DNA from: Owenia fusiformis
Lineage: Eukaryota; Annelida; Polychaeta; Sabellida; Oweniidae
Reading direction: 5' to 3'
NCBI GenBank assembly: GCA_903813345.2
Contig: CAIIXF020000009.1
Coordinates: 19,739,759-19,803,758, forward strand
Length of the DNA: 64,000 bases
The notes beneath the pieces are model-generated. The model had not been told where the DNA came from. It did not search any database and saw only the letters and a list, made by a program, of their open reading frames with translations. Of the stretch, positions 18,001-62,924 are shown one piece after another. Made by a program: the position numbers and the translations under genes. Positions within the stretch are counted from its first letter, which is position 1, and every line of letters begins with the position of its first letter.

Positions 18001-21000
18001 AGAATTTTTCGCCTCCTGTGTTATTTCAATGGGAGAGGTTTTTTGAAAAACAATTTTGACTTTAAAGCCCTATAATTTTGTTGAACCTGAAGAAACATAT
18101 TAATTTTTTGCTAAATAAAGTTAGCAAATTCGCTTACCTGCCTAACTCGTATTTTTTGCAAGGACTCGGATGGATGGATATTCTGTCATATGACTTGCGG
18201 CAAACCTACCATTTCCCATAGGTTAACATGGGATTGTCGATTGTCGAGAAAATTTGGAGGTATTGGAATTAAAGTAAAATTACGTTTCCATCAATAGTAG
18301 GTTAAGTAAATAAAAATTCAAAGGTAAAGAGGCTTTAACACGTAGTTCAATGGGGGAAAAAGGTTGCCAAACTTATGGAGGGGAGTGTATATCCATGAGT
18401 GGATATATGATATCTTCATGAGCGCAATTGATGAGTGACGATATTGATATCAATGAATGGATATAAATGATATTCTTTTAAAACCATTGGATTGTCCGTT
18501 TATTCCAGAGAAATCATTACCCATTAATGTCCATGAGTGGATATATGATATCTTCACAAGTATATCTTGCAAAAGCGAAACTGTCAAAATGGTACAGCAG
18601 ACGGTAGCATTTCTTTTGACCAAAATGTTGATGGCTTTTTCGAAGATAATGAGAATGAGAACACTTTAAAAAACAAATCTGCACTATTGGTGTCCTAAAA
18701 ACCGCACTCGTGAAATCTTACTTGTCATGAGATAAATCAGTTATGTGATGCTCGGTTTTTAATATGGGGTATATCCCTCGGGAAATATGATATCTTACCT
18801 CGGACCGTCCGGGCCCTCGGTAAGATATCTATATTCCCCTTAGCAAGATAGGATATATCCCAAATACAGAACCTCCCATAACCCTCATTTATCCCATGGT
18901 TGCAAGGATATAGATCGAATATCACCTGAAGATATATTTGATATGTGGATCAAGATATCATATTTTAGCAAAAAACAACCATCGAATATCACTTTTGAAA
19001 CCATCGAATCTCACTTTTTCATATTAGAAATCTTGAAACCATCGAGTATCACTTTTCATATTAAAAGAACAGTATGGCTTTCACATAAGTGATACAATAA
19101 TGGCAATACGAATTGCCATTATTTCATACTTGAAATTATCTGCAACTTTACCCATAGGATTCGTTATTTATTGAACCATAGCACATACACAGCTATTCGA
19201 CAGATATTTTACTTTTAAATTAATAACATAAATAAACAGCACATTGCTTTTTTAGTCGTTCAAAACTCACATTCCAACCAACCTGTAAAGTGCCAAATTC
19301 ACGTCTTGCCGCTCGTGTAAAATGAATGAGACCGTGAAATAAATAGTACATACCCTGTAGTTATGTAATACTGATCTCACTCACAATCTTTCGCGTACAG
19401 GTTCACAACAAGACGACAAAAACGCCCGGCGCTATTGAATTTACACGTCAACGGGATTATAAAACAAGTCAGACGTGTCGAATGGAGCATAAAATTACAT
19501 GATTTGTTGCGCGCGCATCATGTTTCACGTACAGGTACAGGTACAGGTTACTATTTGGTGCAATCTTAAGGTCTCTACTATTTTTGTAAGTCAGTCTACA
19601 CACAATGATCTAAACATGTTTCGATTACAGGGAAGTCTGCCTCATTGGACCACTATCGAGATGGTAGCAGAGTAGGGTCCCTGGGTCGTGATGATGTCTA
19701 TAGCTACGACAGTCCTGTCACACATAAGTGAGTATTTGCACACATAGCTAGGCAAGGTGTGTCCAAATCAACCAAGACACACTATCTCACTGCATTCCGT
19801 TATATAACCAATAACGCATTTATTGTATTGTTGTCAAGGTGAGGATGTTGAAATTGATGCTTTGCCAACTTGACCCTTGCAATAAGTTTCATTGAAAATA
19901 TTTTGTAAAATATTTTGCGATGTGTGAAAAGATGATAATTCACCGTTCATTTTGACGCCATACGAGATGAAATCTAAACTATTTTAAAACCAGGAATATT
20001 TTTGAAGGATGAGCTGTGAGAGTCGGAGTAATTGATTGCACTTTGAAGCTTCGATTTAAGCAGAAATAACATACTAACTGTTTTCTGAAACTTCATTGAA
20101 ATATCTCTATTTGAATGATTTAAGGTTTGGGACGCCAATTGAGTTTCAACCAGGAGATGAAATTCGCTTGAAATGTGAGTTCGATTCGACATCGAAGAAT
20201 ACAACAACTTATTATGGCGATGCAACATCTGATGAAATGTGTTATAGTTTTGTGGTGTATTACCCTGAAGTGAAAAACATGAACAGCATCATTCAATTCA
20301 AGAATGCGAGCCTGTGTAAAGGTGTCTTCAGCAAAACATGTCCTGACATCCAAGATTATATGGAAGGCGATGGTCTGAAAAATTTGTGGTGGGAAGTGGT
20401 AAACAATTGTGATACAGACATCGGGGGTAGGTGTCTCCCCGAATGTGAAAAAATGGTTAGACGCATGAAATCCACTGATGGTTGCATGTCGGACAGTAAT
20501 GTCGTTGAACTCATGAAAACCTTTCTAGAGAGTGTTGCTAATATTGATAGTATTTGGAGAGGCTTTGAGTCGTGCGATGACGTGATTGCTCTAAATGAAT
20601 CTGTATTGTGTAACGACTTAGCTACATATATGAACCAAACACTAAAGGGAGTTGCTGAACAAATTGTCGATAGTTGTGATGTCATGGGAAACAACTGCCA
20701 ACCAGAATGTAAAGAAATGATTCAAGAGATAAGACGAACCGATGCTTGCTTGGGCAATCAAATAATGGCTACCTTGATGAAAACTTACACTGCCCAAGTT
20801 CCTGATATTCACTTTTTCTGGCAGGCCTTTGAATCATGTGACGAAGAGTTAGCGCCAGTGAGAGGGAAAGAATGTAACTTGGAAGCGTATATGGAACAAA
20901 ATATCGAAAGCTTTGCAGCAGAAGTTTCACGCAAGTGTGATATGGAAGTCGGAGGTACATGTAAACCCGAATGCAAAGTAATGGTCAAGAAGGCGAGAGA

Positions 21001-21244
21001 AACTGATGAATGTTTGGGAAATCCAAAACATGTTGAAACGATGAAGTTTTACACGCTGCCATACGAGGGCATGGATTATGTCTGGCGAGGTTTCGAATCG
21101 TGCGATGACGAGCTCGAGTTAGCCAACCAAATACCTCCGGACGACGATGAAGATGATGATATGACAGGATCTGCCTCTGGTATTTCCCTCGTCTTTACCG
21201 CACAGCTTCTTGCTGGATTTCTCACCATATTTTTCTTGAACTAA
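3063..21244 (+). CDS. Secreted temptin-domain copper monooxygenase (DBH/PHM-like) with three C-terminal six-Cys repeats
   Basis: Eight exons join in phase to 757 aa: 3063-3281, 10599-10731, 12690-12788, 13478-13657, 13937-14118, 15885-16128, 19631-19727 and 20125-21244. Residues 1-23 are a signal peptide. Residues 24-105 match temptin (IPNGNNIPHPC, GVGH, NPFGLAF, then a calcium-loop-like DSDNDGRTNGQELGDPNC). Residues about 150-440 are the two-lobed type II, ascorbate-dependent copper monooxygenase core, the fold of dopamine beta-hydroxylase and PHM. CuA ligands are H201, H202 (MHHML) and H273 (VHW). CuB ligands are H348, H350 (HMH) and M423 (DEMC). All six are present, so it should be catalytically competent; the substrate is unknown. 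Residues 457-713 hold three six-Cys modules, followed by an acidic linker and a hydrophobic tail (737-755) suggesting GPI anchoring. Introns are all GT-AG. Intron 1 is 7.3 kb and repeat-filled. Confidence 0.9.
5763..6197. mobile_element. Hairpin-rich element, copy 1 of the GGAGTATATCG-palindrome family
   Basis: This copy is the reverse complement of 58421-58876. Shared parts are a hairpin built on ATAGGATATCCTATGATTTT, a GC-rich loop (AGAGAGCAAAGCGAACGAG), the TTTCATGCCAAATAGAGTC block, short palindromes of type CGGAGTATATCGTCACAATAT, and an end reading GTGTAGGATAAT. It does not code. Presence of the same parts in the same order 52 kb away shows a dispersed family. Confidence 0.75.
6198..6690. 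repeat. Palindromic AT-rich repeat containing TATCCATGAGTGGATA
   Basis: This repeat has TATCCATGAGTGGATAT palindromes around a GAGCGCAGCGAGTGAG loop. It is followed by several copies of GTGATATTCGATGGTTT in both orientations and ends near ATCCTTGCAACCATGGGATAA. The same modules recur at 17440-17587 with 18388-19035. This copy preserves the uninterrupted site TCATTTATATCCATGAG, useful for dating the insertion described at 17588-18387. Confidence 0.7.
8705..9175 (+). repeat. Degraded copy of the internal part of the 25390-26382 element
   Basis: Several blocks match in order: CTCGTTTTTC-TGAG followed by TTTTAAGAGA and TTGCA at 8740-8770 versus 25488-25515; TAAATCAT-AAATTAA near 9025 versus 25811; and TATTTAGAAACTAT near 9145 versus 25927. 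The ends seen at 25390 and 26382 are missing, so this is a fragment, abutting the right end of the large inverted repeat. Confidence 0.45.
9472..10228. mobile_element. Foldback element with TGTCCGCTGTGAC ends
   Basis: The termini CTGGTATC and GATACCAG enclose inverted TGTCCGCTGTGAC sequences at 9489 and 10199-10211. A third direct copy lies near 9830. Inner arms around 9560-9740 and 9945-10110 are inverted copies sharing CTTCTGTTTGAAGTCCAATA and TTGTTTAACTTTTTAATG. No coding capacity is convincing. It is probably a non-autonomous DNA transposon in intron 1. Confidence 0.65.
11075..12600. mobile_element. Composite inverted-repeat element carrying transposase remains
   Basis: The outer inverted arms share ATGACACCCACCTTA-GTTGCATAA at about 11095 and 12555. 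A second inverted pair lies at about 11390-11500 and 11560-11690 (AACCAAA-TTTCCTTTGTA). A third pair, TATGAGCGTTACAATA at 11938 and its complement at 12218, brackets the transposase fragment listed separately. The element lies in intron 2. Confidence 0.6.
11953..12240 (+). pseudogene. Decayed C-terminal fragment of a Tc1/mariner-superfamily transposase
   Basis: One frame reads AHFGDRFISRR, then APHSPYIDPQDFDFWGYFK and HVYETNPQI. This is the P-x-SPDL-x-P-x-DFF-x-WG-x-LK signature that precedes the last catalytic residue region in IS630/Tc1/mariner DDE transposases. After a frameshift near 12092 the sequence continues with REITRRVRAQEE, RAINNV and CLQRNRRHMELIV, which matches the typical C-terminus. 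There is no N-terminal DNA-binding domain and no upstream DDE half, so it is inactive. Confidence 0.7.
12817..13370. mobile_element. Degraded inverted-repeat element in intron 3
   Basis: The left end reads TACAGGGTGTTTC. Inverted arms at about 12850-13000 and 13180-13370 share CATTTTGTTCCT-ATGGAC and ACGATTGCAAAGTTTCAGAAT. The right TIR is not intact. It resembles the CAGGGTGTCCC element at 30940-31537 in its left end. Confidence 0.55.
13838..13897. repeat. Short perfect hairpin
   Basis: TCAAGACCCTGGACT and AGTCCAGGGTCTTGA are inverted, separated by about 28 bases, in intron 4. The role is unknown. It may be a solo TIR pair. Confidence 0.5.
14330..14560. repeat. Cluster of GAGTATGGCAT repeats and hairpins
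   Basis: Variants of GAGTATGGCAT and CAGTGAATACGC recur in both orientations across about 200 bases of intron 5. One example is GGTGAGTATGGCATGTTC against GAACATGTCATACTCATC. No gene is visible. Confidence 0.5.
16780..17235. repeat. CTGTCKGTCTGCCAGC minisatellite
   Basis: About 450 bases consist of variants of GGTCTGCCAGCCTGTC and end in a CCGTCTGT run. Several long open frames here on both strands are products of the repeat, with a Cys/Leu/Pro-rich or Thr/Asp/Arg-rich peptide echoing its period. They are not genes. Confidence 0.9.
17440..19035. repeat. Second copy of the TATCCATGAGTGGATA palindromic repeat, interrupted
   Basis: Arms near 17450-17550 and 18890-19035 are inverted (GTGATATTCGATCTATATCC, CTTGCAACCATGGGATAA). 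The central TATCCATGAGTGGATAT module is split at 17587/18388 by an 800 bp insertion. A GC-rich hairpin (18757-18875, CTCGGACCGTCCGGGCCCTCGG loop region) sits in the right half. Confidence 0.7.
17588..18387. mobile_element. 800 bp TA-flanked element with about 170 bp TIRs
   Basis: The ends are CACTCCCCTCCATAAGTTTG and its complement. Inverted similarity continues for roughly 170 bases (AACTACGTGTTAAAGCCTCT and TTTGGAGGTATTGGAA on opposing strands). TA flanks both ends. The related repeat at 6198-6690 supplies the empty site TCATTTATATCCATGAG, in which a single TA replaces the element. The TA duplication places it with Tc1/mariner-type elements. The interior has no open frame, so it is non-autonomous. 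Confidence 0.85.
20339..21109 (+). other. Three tandem six-cysteine modules in the monooxygenase C-terminus
   Basis: The modules are at 20339-20581, 20609-20845 and 20873-21109, all within exon 8. Each has six cysteines with spacing C-x(20-22)-C-x(6-7)-C-x3-C-x12-C-x29-C. Shared landmarks are an early YM, a PEC motif, a central MK and a closing W-x2-FESCD(D/E). The last three spacings are identical in all copies, which implies a common disulfide fold and tandem duplication. I do not recognise the domain. It resembles neither EGF, WAP nor ShK spacing. Confidence 0.85.
21172..21241 (+). other. C-terminal hydrophobic tail, probable GPI-attachment signal
   Basis: After an acidic DDDEDDD linker, the protein ends with small residues (TGSASG), about 19 hydrophobic residues and only two residues after them. 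This is the classical layout of a GPI signal: small omega-site residues, a short spacer and a hydrophobic end without a cytosolic tail. A short transmembrane anchor is the alternative. Confidence 0.6.
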
Positions 21245-45400: not shown

Positions 45401-48400
45401 GAGAAGGGTTTGGTACCCTGTAATTATAAACATGAGAACATCAAAATGAGCGTTACATGCTTCCGTTTTTTAATAATATTTTCAAGAGTACCAGATAAAT
45501 ATAAACATCTGAGTGGTTATCTAGAAAAATTAATTTAAATATGAATCAAGCATAAAAAAATGTTCTGTCTCATTTAAAAGTAAACAAAACTCCCATTATT
45601 TTGGTGAAATCTATTTTGTATCATATAATCAACATGCATGCATATCATCATGTTTACATGTTTTGAATTACTTCCTTAAATTATATATGAGAAGTACAAA
45701 ATAATTTTTTAATCAGAAGGTGTGTTGTATTGTATTGTATCTTTTATTCCTCCACAAGGGAGAGCAAACATATAAAATTTCATCATTTTAATATACAAAA
45801 ATTATAACTACAAAGGAACATATTTACAAAAAACAGTGCTTGAGTTCATTGCCAATATCATGATTATGGACATGTGATTTCTCATAGTGCAATTCTATGT
45901 AAATACAAGGATCAGGATTTGATTACTTTAAAGTAACTGTCTAAATGATAGAGAGATGTAGCACACTCGATGATGAATTGATCGTAAATATCATCATTTA
46001 TGAAAATATCTACTCTACTACCGAGTATAGTCTGTTCAAAAATATCTTCAGAAGCTGATAACAGCTTAACGCTATCATTGACTGGCAAAATATCAACTAA
46101 ATGTTCAAGAAAATCATTTCTTTCGTTTAACATGTATGAGCACCCATGGACTTCTAATAATTATTTGAAGTCCATGGAGCACCCAAGGAAGTGTGCAACT
46201 ATATCTTTGCATAGGATATTGCATTTTTTGCATTGAAAGAATTTATAGTTTGGAATAGTTGAAAGGTAAACAAGGTTAGCCAGATGCCACAAGTGTGTAG
46301 GATTTCGTTTGCCTATTATCCATGCAAAACTTGGTTCAATTTGAATTTGAATGTTGCTGAACATTACAAGATTACTATTTGCATTTATTCTTGCTAACCA
46401 CATTTGCTCTTCTTGCGAATACATGTATACCTGGTATTTTACCATTTTTTTAAATAGTACTTTATGAATGGTTTTCCCTGTTTTAACAAAACTGTCTACA
46501 TAATCACTGATAAGGTTCAACATCATAATTTCATGAATAAATCCTGATTGTGAACTCACACCCTTTAATAAAAATGAAGACAGCCTAAATAAAAACACTC
46601 GCCTTGTCATTACATTAGATGTTCTGCATAAGCGATCGAAAAATAACAGTTTTGCATTATTGATGTAACATGATATAGGTAACAACCCAAGAGTATAAAG
46701 AACAACATCCGAAGACACGTTGTGTTCATAGCCTTGGATTATTTTTGCTATTTCACGATATGCAACATCTAGAGAGTATATATTTTCACACGATAAGTTG
46801 TTCCACAGTTCGCAACCAAACAAGCTGTCGGCAAGATAATTGACATTATTATTTTGACTGCTACCATTGGATTTAGTCCTCCTTTTGGATGCCAATAGGT
46901 TTAACTGAATAAAAGCTACCATTCAATTTATTTTTTGCTTGGTGAACTGATTCATCATTCTTAAGTTGAGCGTGGAGTATGTTGCCAGCATAAGTGTGCG
47001 ATCTTGTTTCTGGGACAGTATCGTTCTGAATTTCCCATTTACGCATGCCCATTTTATTTTCAAATTGTTTTTTTGTTTCGTTAAAGATAATAATCTTACT
47101 TTTACTGTTAATTCCAGCATGATAAGACATACGCCACTTAGAGCTATACTCTGACACTACGTTTAGTAATTCTTGTAACTCATTTGGTGTTGTCGCAATT
47201 ACAGTGGTGTCATCAGCGACAAGTAGCATAGGGATGCGCATGTCGCCCATTAGAGCTCCAAGATTTGTATTTAAAAAATCCAAAGGCAATGCTGATATGA
47301 TCAAACTTCAATTGTTATATACACAAAATTTCAGCCGAATTGAAAAATATTAAAGAAAGTTAGAGCATATATTGCATGACTTCTGGGACAACCCTTGTAT
47401 ATGAATAATGGGAAGTTGCGTACCCTTCTCTTTCTTGAAAGGCCCATGTTTTATGATTACCATTCTCCCACTTAGTATGTATACTGTGTACTGCCAATCT
47501 ATTCATCCATTATAAGCTGTAACATGATTTTATACACTGTAATTACACCCAATGTACGTAATCTAAAGCTTGATCATATGCTTGCAGTTATTGCAATGTG
47601 TGGATAAGTCACGAGTTAGTTGTGACCTTAATATTACAACGTAATCAGACGTGTCACTTATTTTGAGCATTGCAAGATTGATTAGTTGATATCCGACCAT
47701 CTAGGCAAATTACAGGGTATTATTGTTCACTGCCTTGCAATTACCAGAAGCTTTACTTTCTGACATATCTGAGCAATATGAGAGGCAATTGGAGTCAATA
47801 ATATACTCATATTGCTAGATTTATTGGCGTCATTTTAATTAGTGCTGAAATTTTATACATGTTTTCTTTGATTGCTTTGCGTAGTTTAGTCTATATTCTT
47901 GTTTTACCTTTTTTTGGATGGGGAGAGGAAATGAAATCAGAATCAAAATTGACACCACACTGACAGTTTTTTTTCTTTCTACTTAGGGAATATTACTTCT
48001 TAATCACTTATTGCAAGGTTTTTCAGATTGTCTATAGCTAGCAGAACAGAAAAAGTGCATCAATCAAGATTATACTTCCATACCTATATAAATATATGCT
48101 TGCTATTTTAAGGTACTTGGTGGTGCTAGGATGCATGTATTGGCTTACCATGTTGTCATAGGCAACCAGGTTATTGTTAGGGGGAAGAATAAAATTTTGG
48201 TGAAGTCCATCATCACAGCATTAAAAGTAAGTGAGAGAGGATGAATTAATTTAGTTTGATTGATTGATTTTAAACATTTTTTCTCTCTTTCCTGAAAGGA
48301 TCCGCGTAGAAAAGGTCATGGATCCGATTGTAGCACAGGGCACAGATTAAAAACTTGATATTTTTACCAACCAAAATGCTTGCAGATCCTGAGCAGGAAT

Positions 48401-60755: not shown

Positions 60756-62924
60756 TTATGCTGGAGTCCATTGATAGCAACCACCATGTGACATCTCATT
60801 GAATGATCTCTTAACACTTGTATGATCACAGTTTTGACACCCAAGGCCATCCTTTTCTCTCTGTTGACAGCAGACCCATCTCCCTGCCATGATTGTGCCT
60901 CCCATATAGTAAGCACTGTGTTTCTTACAACCCTGTGGTTCTGAGTCAGTGAACTTCATTCCACATCTAGTACATGTCTTTCCCCCAGAGCTTGCTGTTC
61001 CTGTATTCATCTCACTAAGAGCCATCTTTGCTCGTTGGAGGAGATCTTTTTTCATTTGGACCTCTTCTGTTGTCCCCTCATCCTGTTGGTACTTGAGGTA
61101 GGCCTTGATGAGACGTCTAATCGTCTCTGTCACACGGTTGATTCGAGGGATCCCATCATCTTTTATACCAAATTGTGATGTTGATGAGAGTTCATACACT
61201 GGTGATCTTGATACCACCTCTTCTAGCCATGGAGGAAGAGTAAGACCTGGCTCAACGATACAGAAAACAATTGGCTTCCTACAGGCAATTGCATACTTTA
61301 TCTCAATGTTGCAATTAGCAGACTTAAGGTACTTACTAGTCAAGAATGACATAATACATGTTGAAGATTCAACAGCGTTGGACATAGAATCATATATATT
61401 ACCGAGCATACCTCCCCAGATATCAAGCCATGTCTTCATTCCTCTCATGCTAAAGTCCATATAGAGATCACGCACAAAGGTCTGGATGTCCCATTGATAA
61501 GACAGCATAACATCAAATCTCTGCTTTATAGGTACACCCCTTGGATCAAAAAGTGGTTCTGGTGGGTTAAAAGTCATACGTGTTATTTCATGATGTATGT
61601 ATGCCATACCTAGCTCACTTTTATCTCCATCCATATACTTTCTAAGATTCTCAACAGGTGGTTCTTCATTCCTCTCAATTTTATAGTCCTTTGGTGGCCA
61701 TTGTCCATTCTGTTCAAGCTTGGCCTTAATTGGTGCTATTTCCGCATCAATAGCTTTATGCTGGGCTGCCTCTCGCTGCTCCTCTGTTGCCTGTGGGTTC
61801 AACAATGCAGCAACAGCAGAGACAAAATCATTCATAGGTGTGCTGTCATACTGTTTCTTATAAGCAGTTGCAGAATCATAAAGCCTGTGGTAAAGTTTCC
61901 CAGCAATGCCCAACTCTAGCCAACCACCAGGACGGTACCCTTTCTTGTAGTTGATTGGCACAATTTCCTTCTTCAAAGCCCTGGCGCATTCATATTCTTC
62001 CTGACGAATTGCTGAATTTTCATATTCTGGTGACATGACTGCAATGAAGACTTGACAGTTGCAAACCTTTTCTATATTGGAATTATTTGGTTGGAGGACA
62101 TTTGGAGAGAACTTATGAAGATCTGATCCAGTTATGAGACTAACACAGTCACTAGAATCTGGCATATAAGCAATTACTACTCCCTGTGCTGCTCCCTGTT
62201 TGAAGCCAGTAGGTGCTGATTCAGCGATGTCTACTGTTATGTCCTTTCCACTTGATTCTGATGCATTGATAGCCTCTACAAGCAGATCACTGTCTGTGTC
62301 ATCAAACTTGGCAGTGCTCTTAAATGGTATAGTAAGTTTACCAACTGACATTATAGCTGCAAGGGGCCCTGTTGGCTTATAGTTTGGTTGCACTAAGATG
62401 GCAAATACATCTTTCCACTTCCCCTGAGCAAAGTTGATCAGTTCATGCAGAGGTTGTGCACGTTGGTATTTCACAGATGCTAGGACGACAATACCCAGGG
62501 AACATTGTACAGCTTGCTCTCGCATACGTAGACTGCTTGGCTCAGCTTCAGTCATTTTAAACACTTTGATTCCTCTTGTTGTAAGCTTGTCATTGATGAT
62601 AGCAGCTAAAGTTGAATAACTGCTGTGGTAGCTCAAAACTATACTTCTTACATTTGTAGATTTGGAACTAGGTGCTTTTGATGGAGGATTACCAGCATTG
62701 ACTTTCTCAGCTTCATTGGCAGTTTCATTGTGCTGTATTGGAGCTGTTCTTACATTTGTAGATTTTGAACTAGGTGCTCTTGATGGAGGATCACCAGCAT
62801 TGTCTTTCTCAGCTTCATTGGCGGTTTCATTGTGCCTTATTGGAGCAGTTTTGACATGTTGTGTTGGCTCTTGTTGCTTCTGCACTTTCTGTGAGCTGCT
62901 TTTCTTTGAAGAGCCAGACCCCAT
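60756..62924 (-). CDS. Triple-TIR protein with N-myristoylation motif and CHORD-like zinc tail
   Basis: A single coding exon encodes 722 aa. The first in-frame ATG (62924) follows a clear acceptor (TTTGTTTCCAG at 62930-62940), so there is a 5' non-coding exon upstream. MGSGSSKKSSSQK fits N-myristoylation plus a basic patch, implying membrane attachment. Residues 26-93 are a 34-aa tandem duplication (TAPI-HNETANEAEK). TIR-like domain 1 is about 93-205 (SIVLSYHS; FAILVQP). Domain 2 is about 248-350 (VVIAYMPDSSD; FIAVMSPEYENS; E310). Domain 3 is about 467-580 (RFDVMLSYQWD; FLTSKYLKSANCNIE). E541 in domain 3 aligns with the catalytic glutamate of SARM1-type NADases. Residues 651-701 have C-x2-C, C-x2-H, W-x-CC, GC and H in CHORD-like order. 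The protein probably acts in innate immune signalling or NAD cleavage. Domains 1 and 2 are divergent and may be regulatory. Confidence 0.88.
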   Translation of the reverse strand: MGSGSSKKSSSQKVQKQQEPTQHVKTAPIRHNETANEAEKDNAGDPPSRAPSSKSTNVRTAPIQHNETANEAEKVNAGNPPSKAPSSKSTNVRSIVLSYHSSYSTLAAIINDKLTTRGIKVFKMTEAEPSSLRMREQAVQCSLGIVVLASVKYQRAQPLHELINFAQGKWKDVFAILVQPNYKPTGPLAAIMSVGKLTIPFKSTAKFDDTDSDLLVEAINASESSGKDITVDIAESAPTGFKQGAAQGVVIAYMPDSSDCVSLITGSDLHKFSPNVLQPNNSNIEKVCNCQVFIAVMSPEYENSAIRQEEYECARALKKEIVPINYKKGYRPGGWLELGIAGKLYHRLYDSATAYKKQYDSTPMNDFVSAVAALLNPQATEEQREAAQHKAIDAEIAPIKAKLEQNGQWPPKDYKIERNEEPPVENLRKYMDGDKSELGMAYIHHEITRMTFNPPEPLFDPRGVPIKQRFDVMLSYQWDIQTFVRDLYMDFSMRGMKTWLDIWGGMLGNIYDSMSNAVESSTCIMSFLTSKYLKSANCNIEIKYAIACRKPIVFCIVEPGLTLPPWLEEVVSRSPVYELSSTSQFGIKDDGIPRINRVTETIRRLIKAYLKYQQDEGTTEEVQMKKDLLQRAKMALSEMNTGTASSGGKTCTRCGMKFTDSEPQGCKKHSAYYMGGTIMAGRWVCCQQREKDGLGCQNCDHTSVKRSFNEMSHGGCYQWTPA

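What the first reader, a model, noticed from the sequence alone, without database searches (positions are those of the whole stretch)
60756..62924. Three TIR-like domains plus CHORD-like zinc module behind a myristoylation signal
TIR domains usually occur singly with receptor or SAM/ARM partners. Three in one chain, with a membrane-tethering MGSGSSKK start and a C-terminal C-x2-C...C-x2-H...W-x-CC...GC...H motif like that of CHORD proteins, is unusual. CHORD proteins (RAR1, CHORDC1) are known co-chaperones of plant NLR immune receptors, so a TIR-CHORD link in one animal protein would be notable. Only domain 3 looks like a canonical TIR with the NADase glutamate (E541).
Basis: partly seen in the sequence, partly recalled or inferred. 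Interest (0 to 1): 0.75.

Follow-up and report, generated by a model that had tools for sequence, protein, structure and literature searches.

The report
Triple-TIR protein with BTK-type zinc tail
A single animal gene encodes three TIR (immune-signalling) domains behind a likely fatty-acid membrane anchor and ends in a zinc-finger-like module closest to that of BTK kinases; it is a new variant of a TIR plus BTK-finger design already reported in sea anemones, and its function is untested.

Summary
A 722-codon ORF on the minus strand (62924..60756) carries three TIR domains: a profile made only from two ARM-TIR proteins elsewhere in the same genome scores the segments at 35, 36 and 59 bits, while the best of 5000 shuffles of each reached 9.3. 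Segment 2 matches only in its C-terminal half. The start fits an N-myristoylation signal and lies 5 bases after a splice-acceptor-like site. The CHORD reading is partly right: by sequence the tail is nearer a BTK-type finger (23.4 bits, 0 of 5000 shuffles) than CHORD (5.7 bits, 29 of 5000), yet its ligand order follows the two-zinc CHORD layout without one His. A 2018 title, seen only as a citation, says the two finger types are related. [quoted passage not shown] This copy has three TIRs and a myristoylation-type start, and is the only strong match in its genome. Most likely it is a membrane-tethered TIR scaffold; NADase activity of TIR3 (E541) is possible. Structure prediction failed without homologues.

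The parts
60756..62924 (-). Whole ORF, 722 aa, ATG to stop, no intron inside
   Evidence: only strong match in the host genome
62925..62946 (-). Splice-acceptor-like site (tttatttttgtttccag|ataaa) ending 5 bases before the ATG; ATG context has A at -3 and G at +4
   Evidence: sequence; a 5' UTR intron is inferred, no RNA data
62874..62924 (-). N-terminal MGSGSSKKSSSQKVQKQ: N-myristoylation consensus (Gly1, Ser5) followed by lysines
   Evidence: sequence; consensus as quoted in PMC5492501 (passages)
62645..62862 (-). Linker with 2.1 copies of a 102-bp (34-codon) tandem repeat
62274..62651 (-). TIR1 (aa 92-217), aligned over most of the profile; Leu162 at the Glu column
   Evidence: weak with the wider profile
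61872..62183 (-). TIR2 (about aa 248-351): clear match only in the second half (aa 286-346), first half shortened; E310 at the Glu column
61179..61514 (-). TIR3 (aa 471-582), the most canonical; E541 at the Glu column
60777..60974 (-). C-terminal Cys/His module (aa 651-716), ligand order C-C-C-H-CC-C-H as in CHORD minus one His
60822..60890 (-). BTK motif match (aa 679-701) inside the module
   Evidence: only PDB sequence match at E<=10 is ITK 2e6i, E=0.018

Best explanation
The gene encodes a signalling scaffold of animal innate immunity. Step 1 (inferred from a consensus): N-myristoylation of the Gly after Met, with nearby lysines, tethers the protein to a membrane, as for the TLR adaptor TRAM. 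Step 2 (domains shown, role inferred): three TIR domains in one chain, two degenerate and one near-canonical, nucleate TIR-TIR assembly, with TIR1 and TIR2 as built-in partners or brakes for TIR3. Step 3 (inferred): the BTK/CHORD-type zinc module at the C-terminus recruits or regulates partners. It fits the 'TIR_2 upstream of BTK motif' class first reported in sea anemones (Novel Gene 2).
For: Three TIR domains. BTK motif. Myristoylation consensus at a start codon just after an acceptor-like site. Same architecture class in print, with dN/dS 0.11 in anemones (PMC5094078, passages). Precedents: TRAM needs its N-terminal Gly for membrane location and signalling (PMC5492501, passages); tandem TIRs in mollusc Toll-2 go with stronger output (PMC4929906, abstract) and those of cotton GhRVD1 self-associate (PMC10170703, passages). 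Neighbouring ORFs look like ordinary animal genes.
Against: No expression, localisation or interaction data. No orthologue sequence could be fetched, so conservation of the N-terminus and of the three-TIR layout is untested. AlphaFold models were unusable (mean pLDDT 33.4 and 42.8). BTK is just under Pfam's gathering score in the protein scans (21.6 and 22.1 against 24). TIR1 is weak with a wider profile. E541 and E310 are kept, as an NAD-cleaving enzyme would also show.
Confidence: 0.5

Rival explanations
1. It is a TIR enzyme: TIR3 hydrolyses NAD+ (or makes an NAD-derived signal) when the chain clusters at the membrane, and TIR1, TIR2 and the zinc tail hold it off, as the ARM part is recalled to do in SARM1.
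For: E541 sits at the column of the Glu of the host's ARM-TIR proteins and E310 of TIR2 does too. TIR3 scores 58.6 bits with the ARM-TIR profile and 45.3 with the wider, TLR-rich one; bits of different profiles compare only roughly.
Against: Only the Glu was checked; that its column is the catalytic Glu of SARM1 is recalled, not tested. No usable structure model. Chains with several TIRs need not be enzymes.
Confidence: 0.27
2. It is a TIR-CHORD protein that links HSP90/SGT1-type chaperones to immune receptors in an animal, as RAR1 does in plants.
For: Ligand order C-x2-C-x11-C-x2-H-x15-CC-x9-C-x4-H against C-x4-C-x13-C-x2-H-x14-CC-x15-C-x4-H in human CHORD-I, 8 of its 9 Cys/His positions in order. 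Two C3H motifs, six Cys and two His, are said to make a CHORD (PMC12129344, passage), and that number is present here.
Against: CHORD profile 4.6 bits (63 of 5000 shuffles, 168 of 5000 with Cys/His kept, one row mistyped) and 5.7 bits (29 of 5000), while human and plant CHORDs match each other at E=2.1e-20. No Pfam CHORD hit. CC-to-C spacing is that of ITK. The host has its own CHORD gene region.
Confidence: 0.08
3. It is a decaying or unexpressed gene.
For: No intron in the ORF; TIR2 has a shortened first half; tandem repeat in the linker.
Against: 722 codons without a stop and an intact Cys/His set, a good start context with an acceptor-like site, and no other strong copy found.
Confidence: 0.07

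Closest known systems
Novel Gene 2 (NG2) of sea anemones, van der Burg et al. 2016, PMC5094078 (passages)
   Same: TIR_2 domain(s) upstream of a BTK motif; function untested
   Different: [quoted passage not shown] a myristoylation start is not mentioned in the passages seen; sequences could not be compared
ARM-TIR proteins of the same genome (L003, L004)
   Same: TIR domains 31% and 25% identical to TIR3; L003 is the best other match of the full protein
   Different: One TIR_2 stretch each, Arm repeat over Pfam's cut-off, no BTK or CHORD
BTK motif of TEC-type kinases (ITK 2e6i) and two other host places
   Same: W-x-CC-x9-C core
   Different: His 15 instead of 10 residues before CC; extra C-x2-C and C-x2-H before and C-x4-H after
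CHORD domain (CHORDC1 2yrt, RAR1 2xcm)
   Same: Order of Cys/His ligands except one His
   Different: Profile score within reach of shuffles; shorter CC-to-C loop
TRAM (facts from PMC5492501, passages)
   Same: Myristoylated N-terminus on a TIR protein
   Different: No zinc module or extra TIRs (recalled); not claimed as an orthologue
Mollusc Toll-2 with tandem TIRs (PMC4929906, abstract); Dictyostelium TirE with two diverged TIRs (PMC13142454, passage)
   Same: More than one TIR in one chain
   Different: A Toll receptor, or a protein with RCC1 repeats; no zinc tail mentioned in what I saw

Membership tests
TIR domain superfamily (three segments) | Significant profile match to known TIR domains | tested here: met
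   ARM-TIR profile: 35.2, 36.2, 58.6 bits, 0 of 5000 shuffles each. Segments 1 and 2 alone stay below Pfam's gathering score; segment 1 is weak with a wider profile (34 of 2000).
TIR domain superfamily (three segments) | TIR fold | tested here: inconclusive
   AlphaFold without homologues, mean pLDDT 33.4
BTK motif (PF00779) | Profile match over the gathering score | tested here: inconclusive
   21.6 and 22.1 bits against 24 in protein scans; 24.1 bits, over, in the genome scan
BTK motif (PF00779) | His, CC and C zinc ligands at BTK spacing | tested here: inconclusive
   CC-x9-C as in ITK; His 15 residues before CC instead of 10
CHORD (PF04968) | Profile match | tested here: not met
   Not listed at E<=10; own CHORD profile 5.7 bits, 29 of 5000 shuffles
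CHORD (PF04968) | Two C3H zinc motifs in CHORD order | tested here: inconclusive
   Six Cys and two His in the order of human CHORD-I, its middle His absent; which His binds zinc was not determined
NG2 architecture (TIR_2 + BTK motif) | TIR_2 domain(s) upstream of a BTK motif | tested here: met
   against the description read; BTK just under the gathering score in protein scans
NG2 architecture (TIR_2 + BTK motif) | Orthology to the anemone proteins | not testable with these tools
   No other animal genome was searchable
N-myristoylated proteins | Gly after Met, Ser/Thr at position 5 | tested here: met
   GSGSSKK read, consensus; the modification itself needs the bench
TIR NADases (SARM1-like) | Catalytic Glu | tested here: inconclusive
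   E541 and E310 at one aligned column, Leu162 in TIR1; aligned to ARM-TIR proteins, not to SARM1
TIR NADases (SARM1-like) | NAD+ hydrolysis | not testable with these tools
   needs a bench assay

The most novel reading that the evidence does not exclude
The tail is an intermediate between the one-zinc BTK finger and the two-zinc CHORD, and it gates a membrane-anchored three-TIR enzyme: an old animal TIR-zinc immune switch, shared with anemones, in which a CHORD/BTK-type module controls TIR NADase activity.
Probability: 0.12. Interest if true: 0.7.

Novelty: new variant of a known kind. Interest (0 to 1): 0.42.

Why it matters
If orthologous to the anemone genes, it would show that the TIR plus BTK-finger design is an old, overlooked animal immune protein and not only an actiniarian one, and it gives a gene with one strong copy in which to test what degenerate TIRs and a zinc module do to a TIR signal. 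TIR clades outside the model organisms are described as common and uncharacterised (PMC13142454, section 5 read); which clade this one belongs to was not tested.

Tried and rejected
AlphaFold on the full protein and on the tail alone gave mean pLDDT 33.4 and 42.8, so I ran no fold search. Homologues for a deeper alignment were not found: alignment A1 was too diverse to search with; the full protein in viral contigs gave 10 pattern matches, none a relative; the two ARM-TIR domains gave 87 matches in genome contigs and 71 in viral contigs, none a relative.

I considered that the 142 TIR_2 matches of the host genome (a lower bound) might be paralogues of this gene. From 16 regions fetched I scanned 18 ORFs with Pfam: none lists BTK or CHORD at E<=0.01 and none shows more than one TIR_2 stretch. 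Two are ARM-TIR, nine carry LRRs with TIR or, in L018, LRRs in one ORF and TIR in the next; six ORFs show only TIR (five loci). The other matches were not read. In my notes and script labels L003 and L004 are called ARM-TIR-SAM; the SAM part is my reading and Pfam did not list it, so the report says ARM-TIR.

A result that could mislead: when TIR2 itself was added to the profile, the linker control rose to 7.4 bits with 0 of 5000 shuffles; the two stretches share 24 residues. A combined CHORD+BTK profile gave 8.3 bits, 9 of 5000 shuffles and 32 of 5000 with Cys/His kept. My CHORD and BTK profiles have three to seven rows, several partial. A first CHORD profile held one row typed wrongly, two residues missing at an exon junction; I repeated the test with the exon pieces as separate rows. 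The sigma-70 scan means nothing for an animal gene. Bacterial contamination was considered and rejected: of five neighbouring ORFs scanned (chosen from 50 listed), four match folliculin, SH2-SH3, carboxylesterase and copper monooxygenase families over cut-off and one a reverse transcriptase below cut-off. Host identity: 498 Mb, with eleven contigs of 35-62 Mb seen, resembles Owenia fusiformis (505.8 Mb, 12 scaffolds; passages); this was not tested. Papers looked at in passages without use: PMC11797021, PMC7075850.

Full report
What is there. The finding's coordinates enclose one open reading frame on the minus strand, 62924 down to 60756, 722 amino acids, no internal stop. The bases before the ATG read, in sense, tttatttttgtttccag|ataaaATGG: a good 3' splice site, then an ATG in good context five bases on. 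I infer a 5' UTR intron and the start MGSGSSKK. There are no RNA data, and an upstream coding exon is not excluded because the frame stays open through those five bases.

Three TIR domains. Pfam finds TIR_2 in three stretches at E<=1 (86.8 bits for the protein). Taken alone the segments give E=1e-3, 5.3e-4 and 5.3e-15; the first two are below the curated cut-off. I therefore built a profile from the TIR domains of two other proteins of the host genome (L003, L004), which Pfam reads as Arm repeat plus TIR_2 and which are 53% identical to each other over the domain. It scores the segments at 35.2, 36.2 and 58.6 bits; in 5000 shuffles of each none reached the real score and the best was 9.3. The linker gave no score and the tail 0.3 bits (489 of 5000 shuffles as good). 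Against this, a wider profile of 17 host TIR rows supported segments 2 and 3 (0 of 2000 each) but segment 1 only weakly (34 of 2000). Segments 1 and 3 align over most of the ARM-TIR profile, segment 2 only over its second half. The Glu of the ARM-TIR domains aligns with E541 in TIR3 and with E310 in TIR2; TIR1 has Leu162 there. That this column is the catalytic Glu of SARM1 is recalled.

The N-terminus. Gly directly after Met and Ser at position 5, then two lysines, fit the N-myristoylation consensus quoted in PMC5492501 (passages). The same review reports that TRAM, a TIR adaptor, needs its N-terminal Gly for membrane location and signalling. The linker after it holds 2.1 copies of a 34-codon repeat.

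The tail. Pfam's best match is the BTK motif, 21.6 to 22.1 bits against a cut-off of 24, or 24.1 bits in the genome scan. zf-C2H2_3 is a weaker match to the first half, 19.6 bits against 27. CHORD is not listed even at E<=10. The only PDB sequence match at E<=10 is ITK, 2e6i, E=0.018. A small BTK profile gives 23.4 bits, 0 of 5000 full shuffles and 0 of 5000 shuffles that keep Cys and His in place. A small CHORD profile gives 4.6 bits (63 and 168 of 5000; one row mistyped), a combined one 8.3 bits (9 and 32 of 5000; all), and the corrected CHORD profile 5.7 bits (29 of 5000 full shuffles). As a yardstick, human and plant CHORDs match each other at E=2.1e-20. The ligand order is nevertheless CHORD-like: C-x2-C-x11-C-x2-H-x15-CC-x9-C-x4-H against C-x4-C-x13-C-x2-H-x14-CC-x15-C-x4-H, leaving out the middle His of CHORD and Cys699 of the window protein. 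PMC12129344 (passages) says a CHORD has two C3H motifs, that is six Cys and two His, which are present here; which His binds zinc I could not determine. [quoted passage not shown] that paper is not held. So the CHORD impression has a real basis, but by sequence the module is nearer to BTK.

Copy number and surroundings. In the host genome the full protein matches itself and, at E=3.3e-11, 3.1e-4 and 3.5e-4, three other TIR places. The tail matches itself and one place at E=9.1. The host has at least 142 TIR_2 matches, three CHORD exon matches within 10 kb of one contig, and two other BTK motifs over the cut-off. Of 18 ORFs scanned from 16 TIR regions none lists BTK or CHORD or a second TIR_2 stretch. 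Four of five neighbouring ORFs scanned match ordinary animal-type families. The host resembles Owenia fusiformis in size; this is a guess.

What is known. [quoted passage not shown] My searches for TIR with BTK or CHORD showed no other paper that I recognise as this design, but only part of each listing was displayed: 20 of 91, 20 of 78, 20 of 107 and 15 of 97 papers. A search for tandem or multiple TIR domains (25 of 55 shown) listed mollusc Toll-2 (PMC4929906, abstract) and the TIR atlas (PMC13142454, section 5 and passages); a dual-TIR cotton protein (PMC10170703, passages) came up. I saw no three-TIR BTK protein with a myristoylation start in those rows.

How it probably works. I favour a membrane-tethered TIR scaffold: myristoyl anchor (consensus shown, modification inferred), three TIR domains as a built-in assembly platform (domains shown, role inferred), zinc module for partner binding (inferred). 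NAD cleavage by TIR3 is the main rival; a chaperone link of the RAR1 type is the least supported of the functional readings. AlphaFold could not decide.

Verdict. A new variant of a known kind, of moderate interest.

Noticed in passing
window 62645-62862: 102-bp tandem repeat (2.1 copies, 90% matches) in the N-terminal linker, likely a recent duplication.
   Followed up: partly
G000:C3:27661430-27661792 (L003) and G000:C7:1714509-1714874 (L004): Single-frame Arm plus TIR_2 proteins with a C-terminal stretch that I read as SAM-like, which Pfam did not list; TIR before SAM would differ from SARM1 (order recalled).
   Followed up: partly
G000, whole genome: At least 142 TIR_2 matches, many in open frames of 700-900 aa; the long ones scanned carry LRRs, which suggests many intronless Toll-like receptors.
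   Followed up: partly
L005, L006, L007, L008, L009: Proteins of 430-500 aa with an N-terminal TIR domain followed by hydrophobic, membrane-like stretches (my reading).
   Followed up: no
window 46164-47307: Reverse-transcriptase-like fragment (RVT_1 E=0.0019, below cut-off), probably a transposon remnant.
   Followed up: no
window 20078-21241: Long open frame with the end of a copper monooxygenase C-terminal domain, then three Cys-rich repeats and a hydrophobic end (my reading).
   Followed up: no
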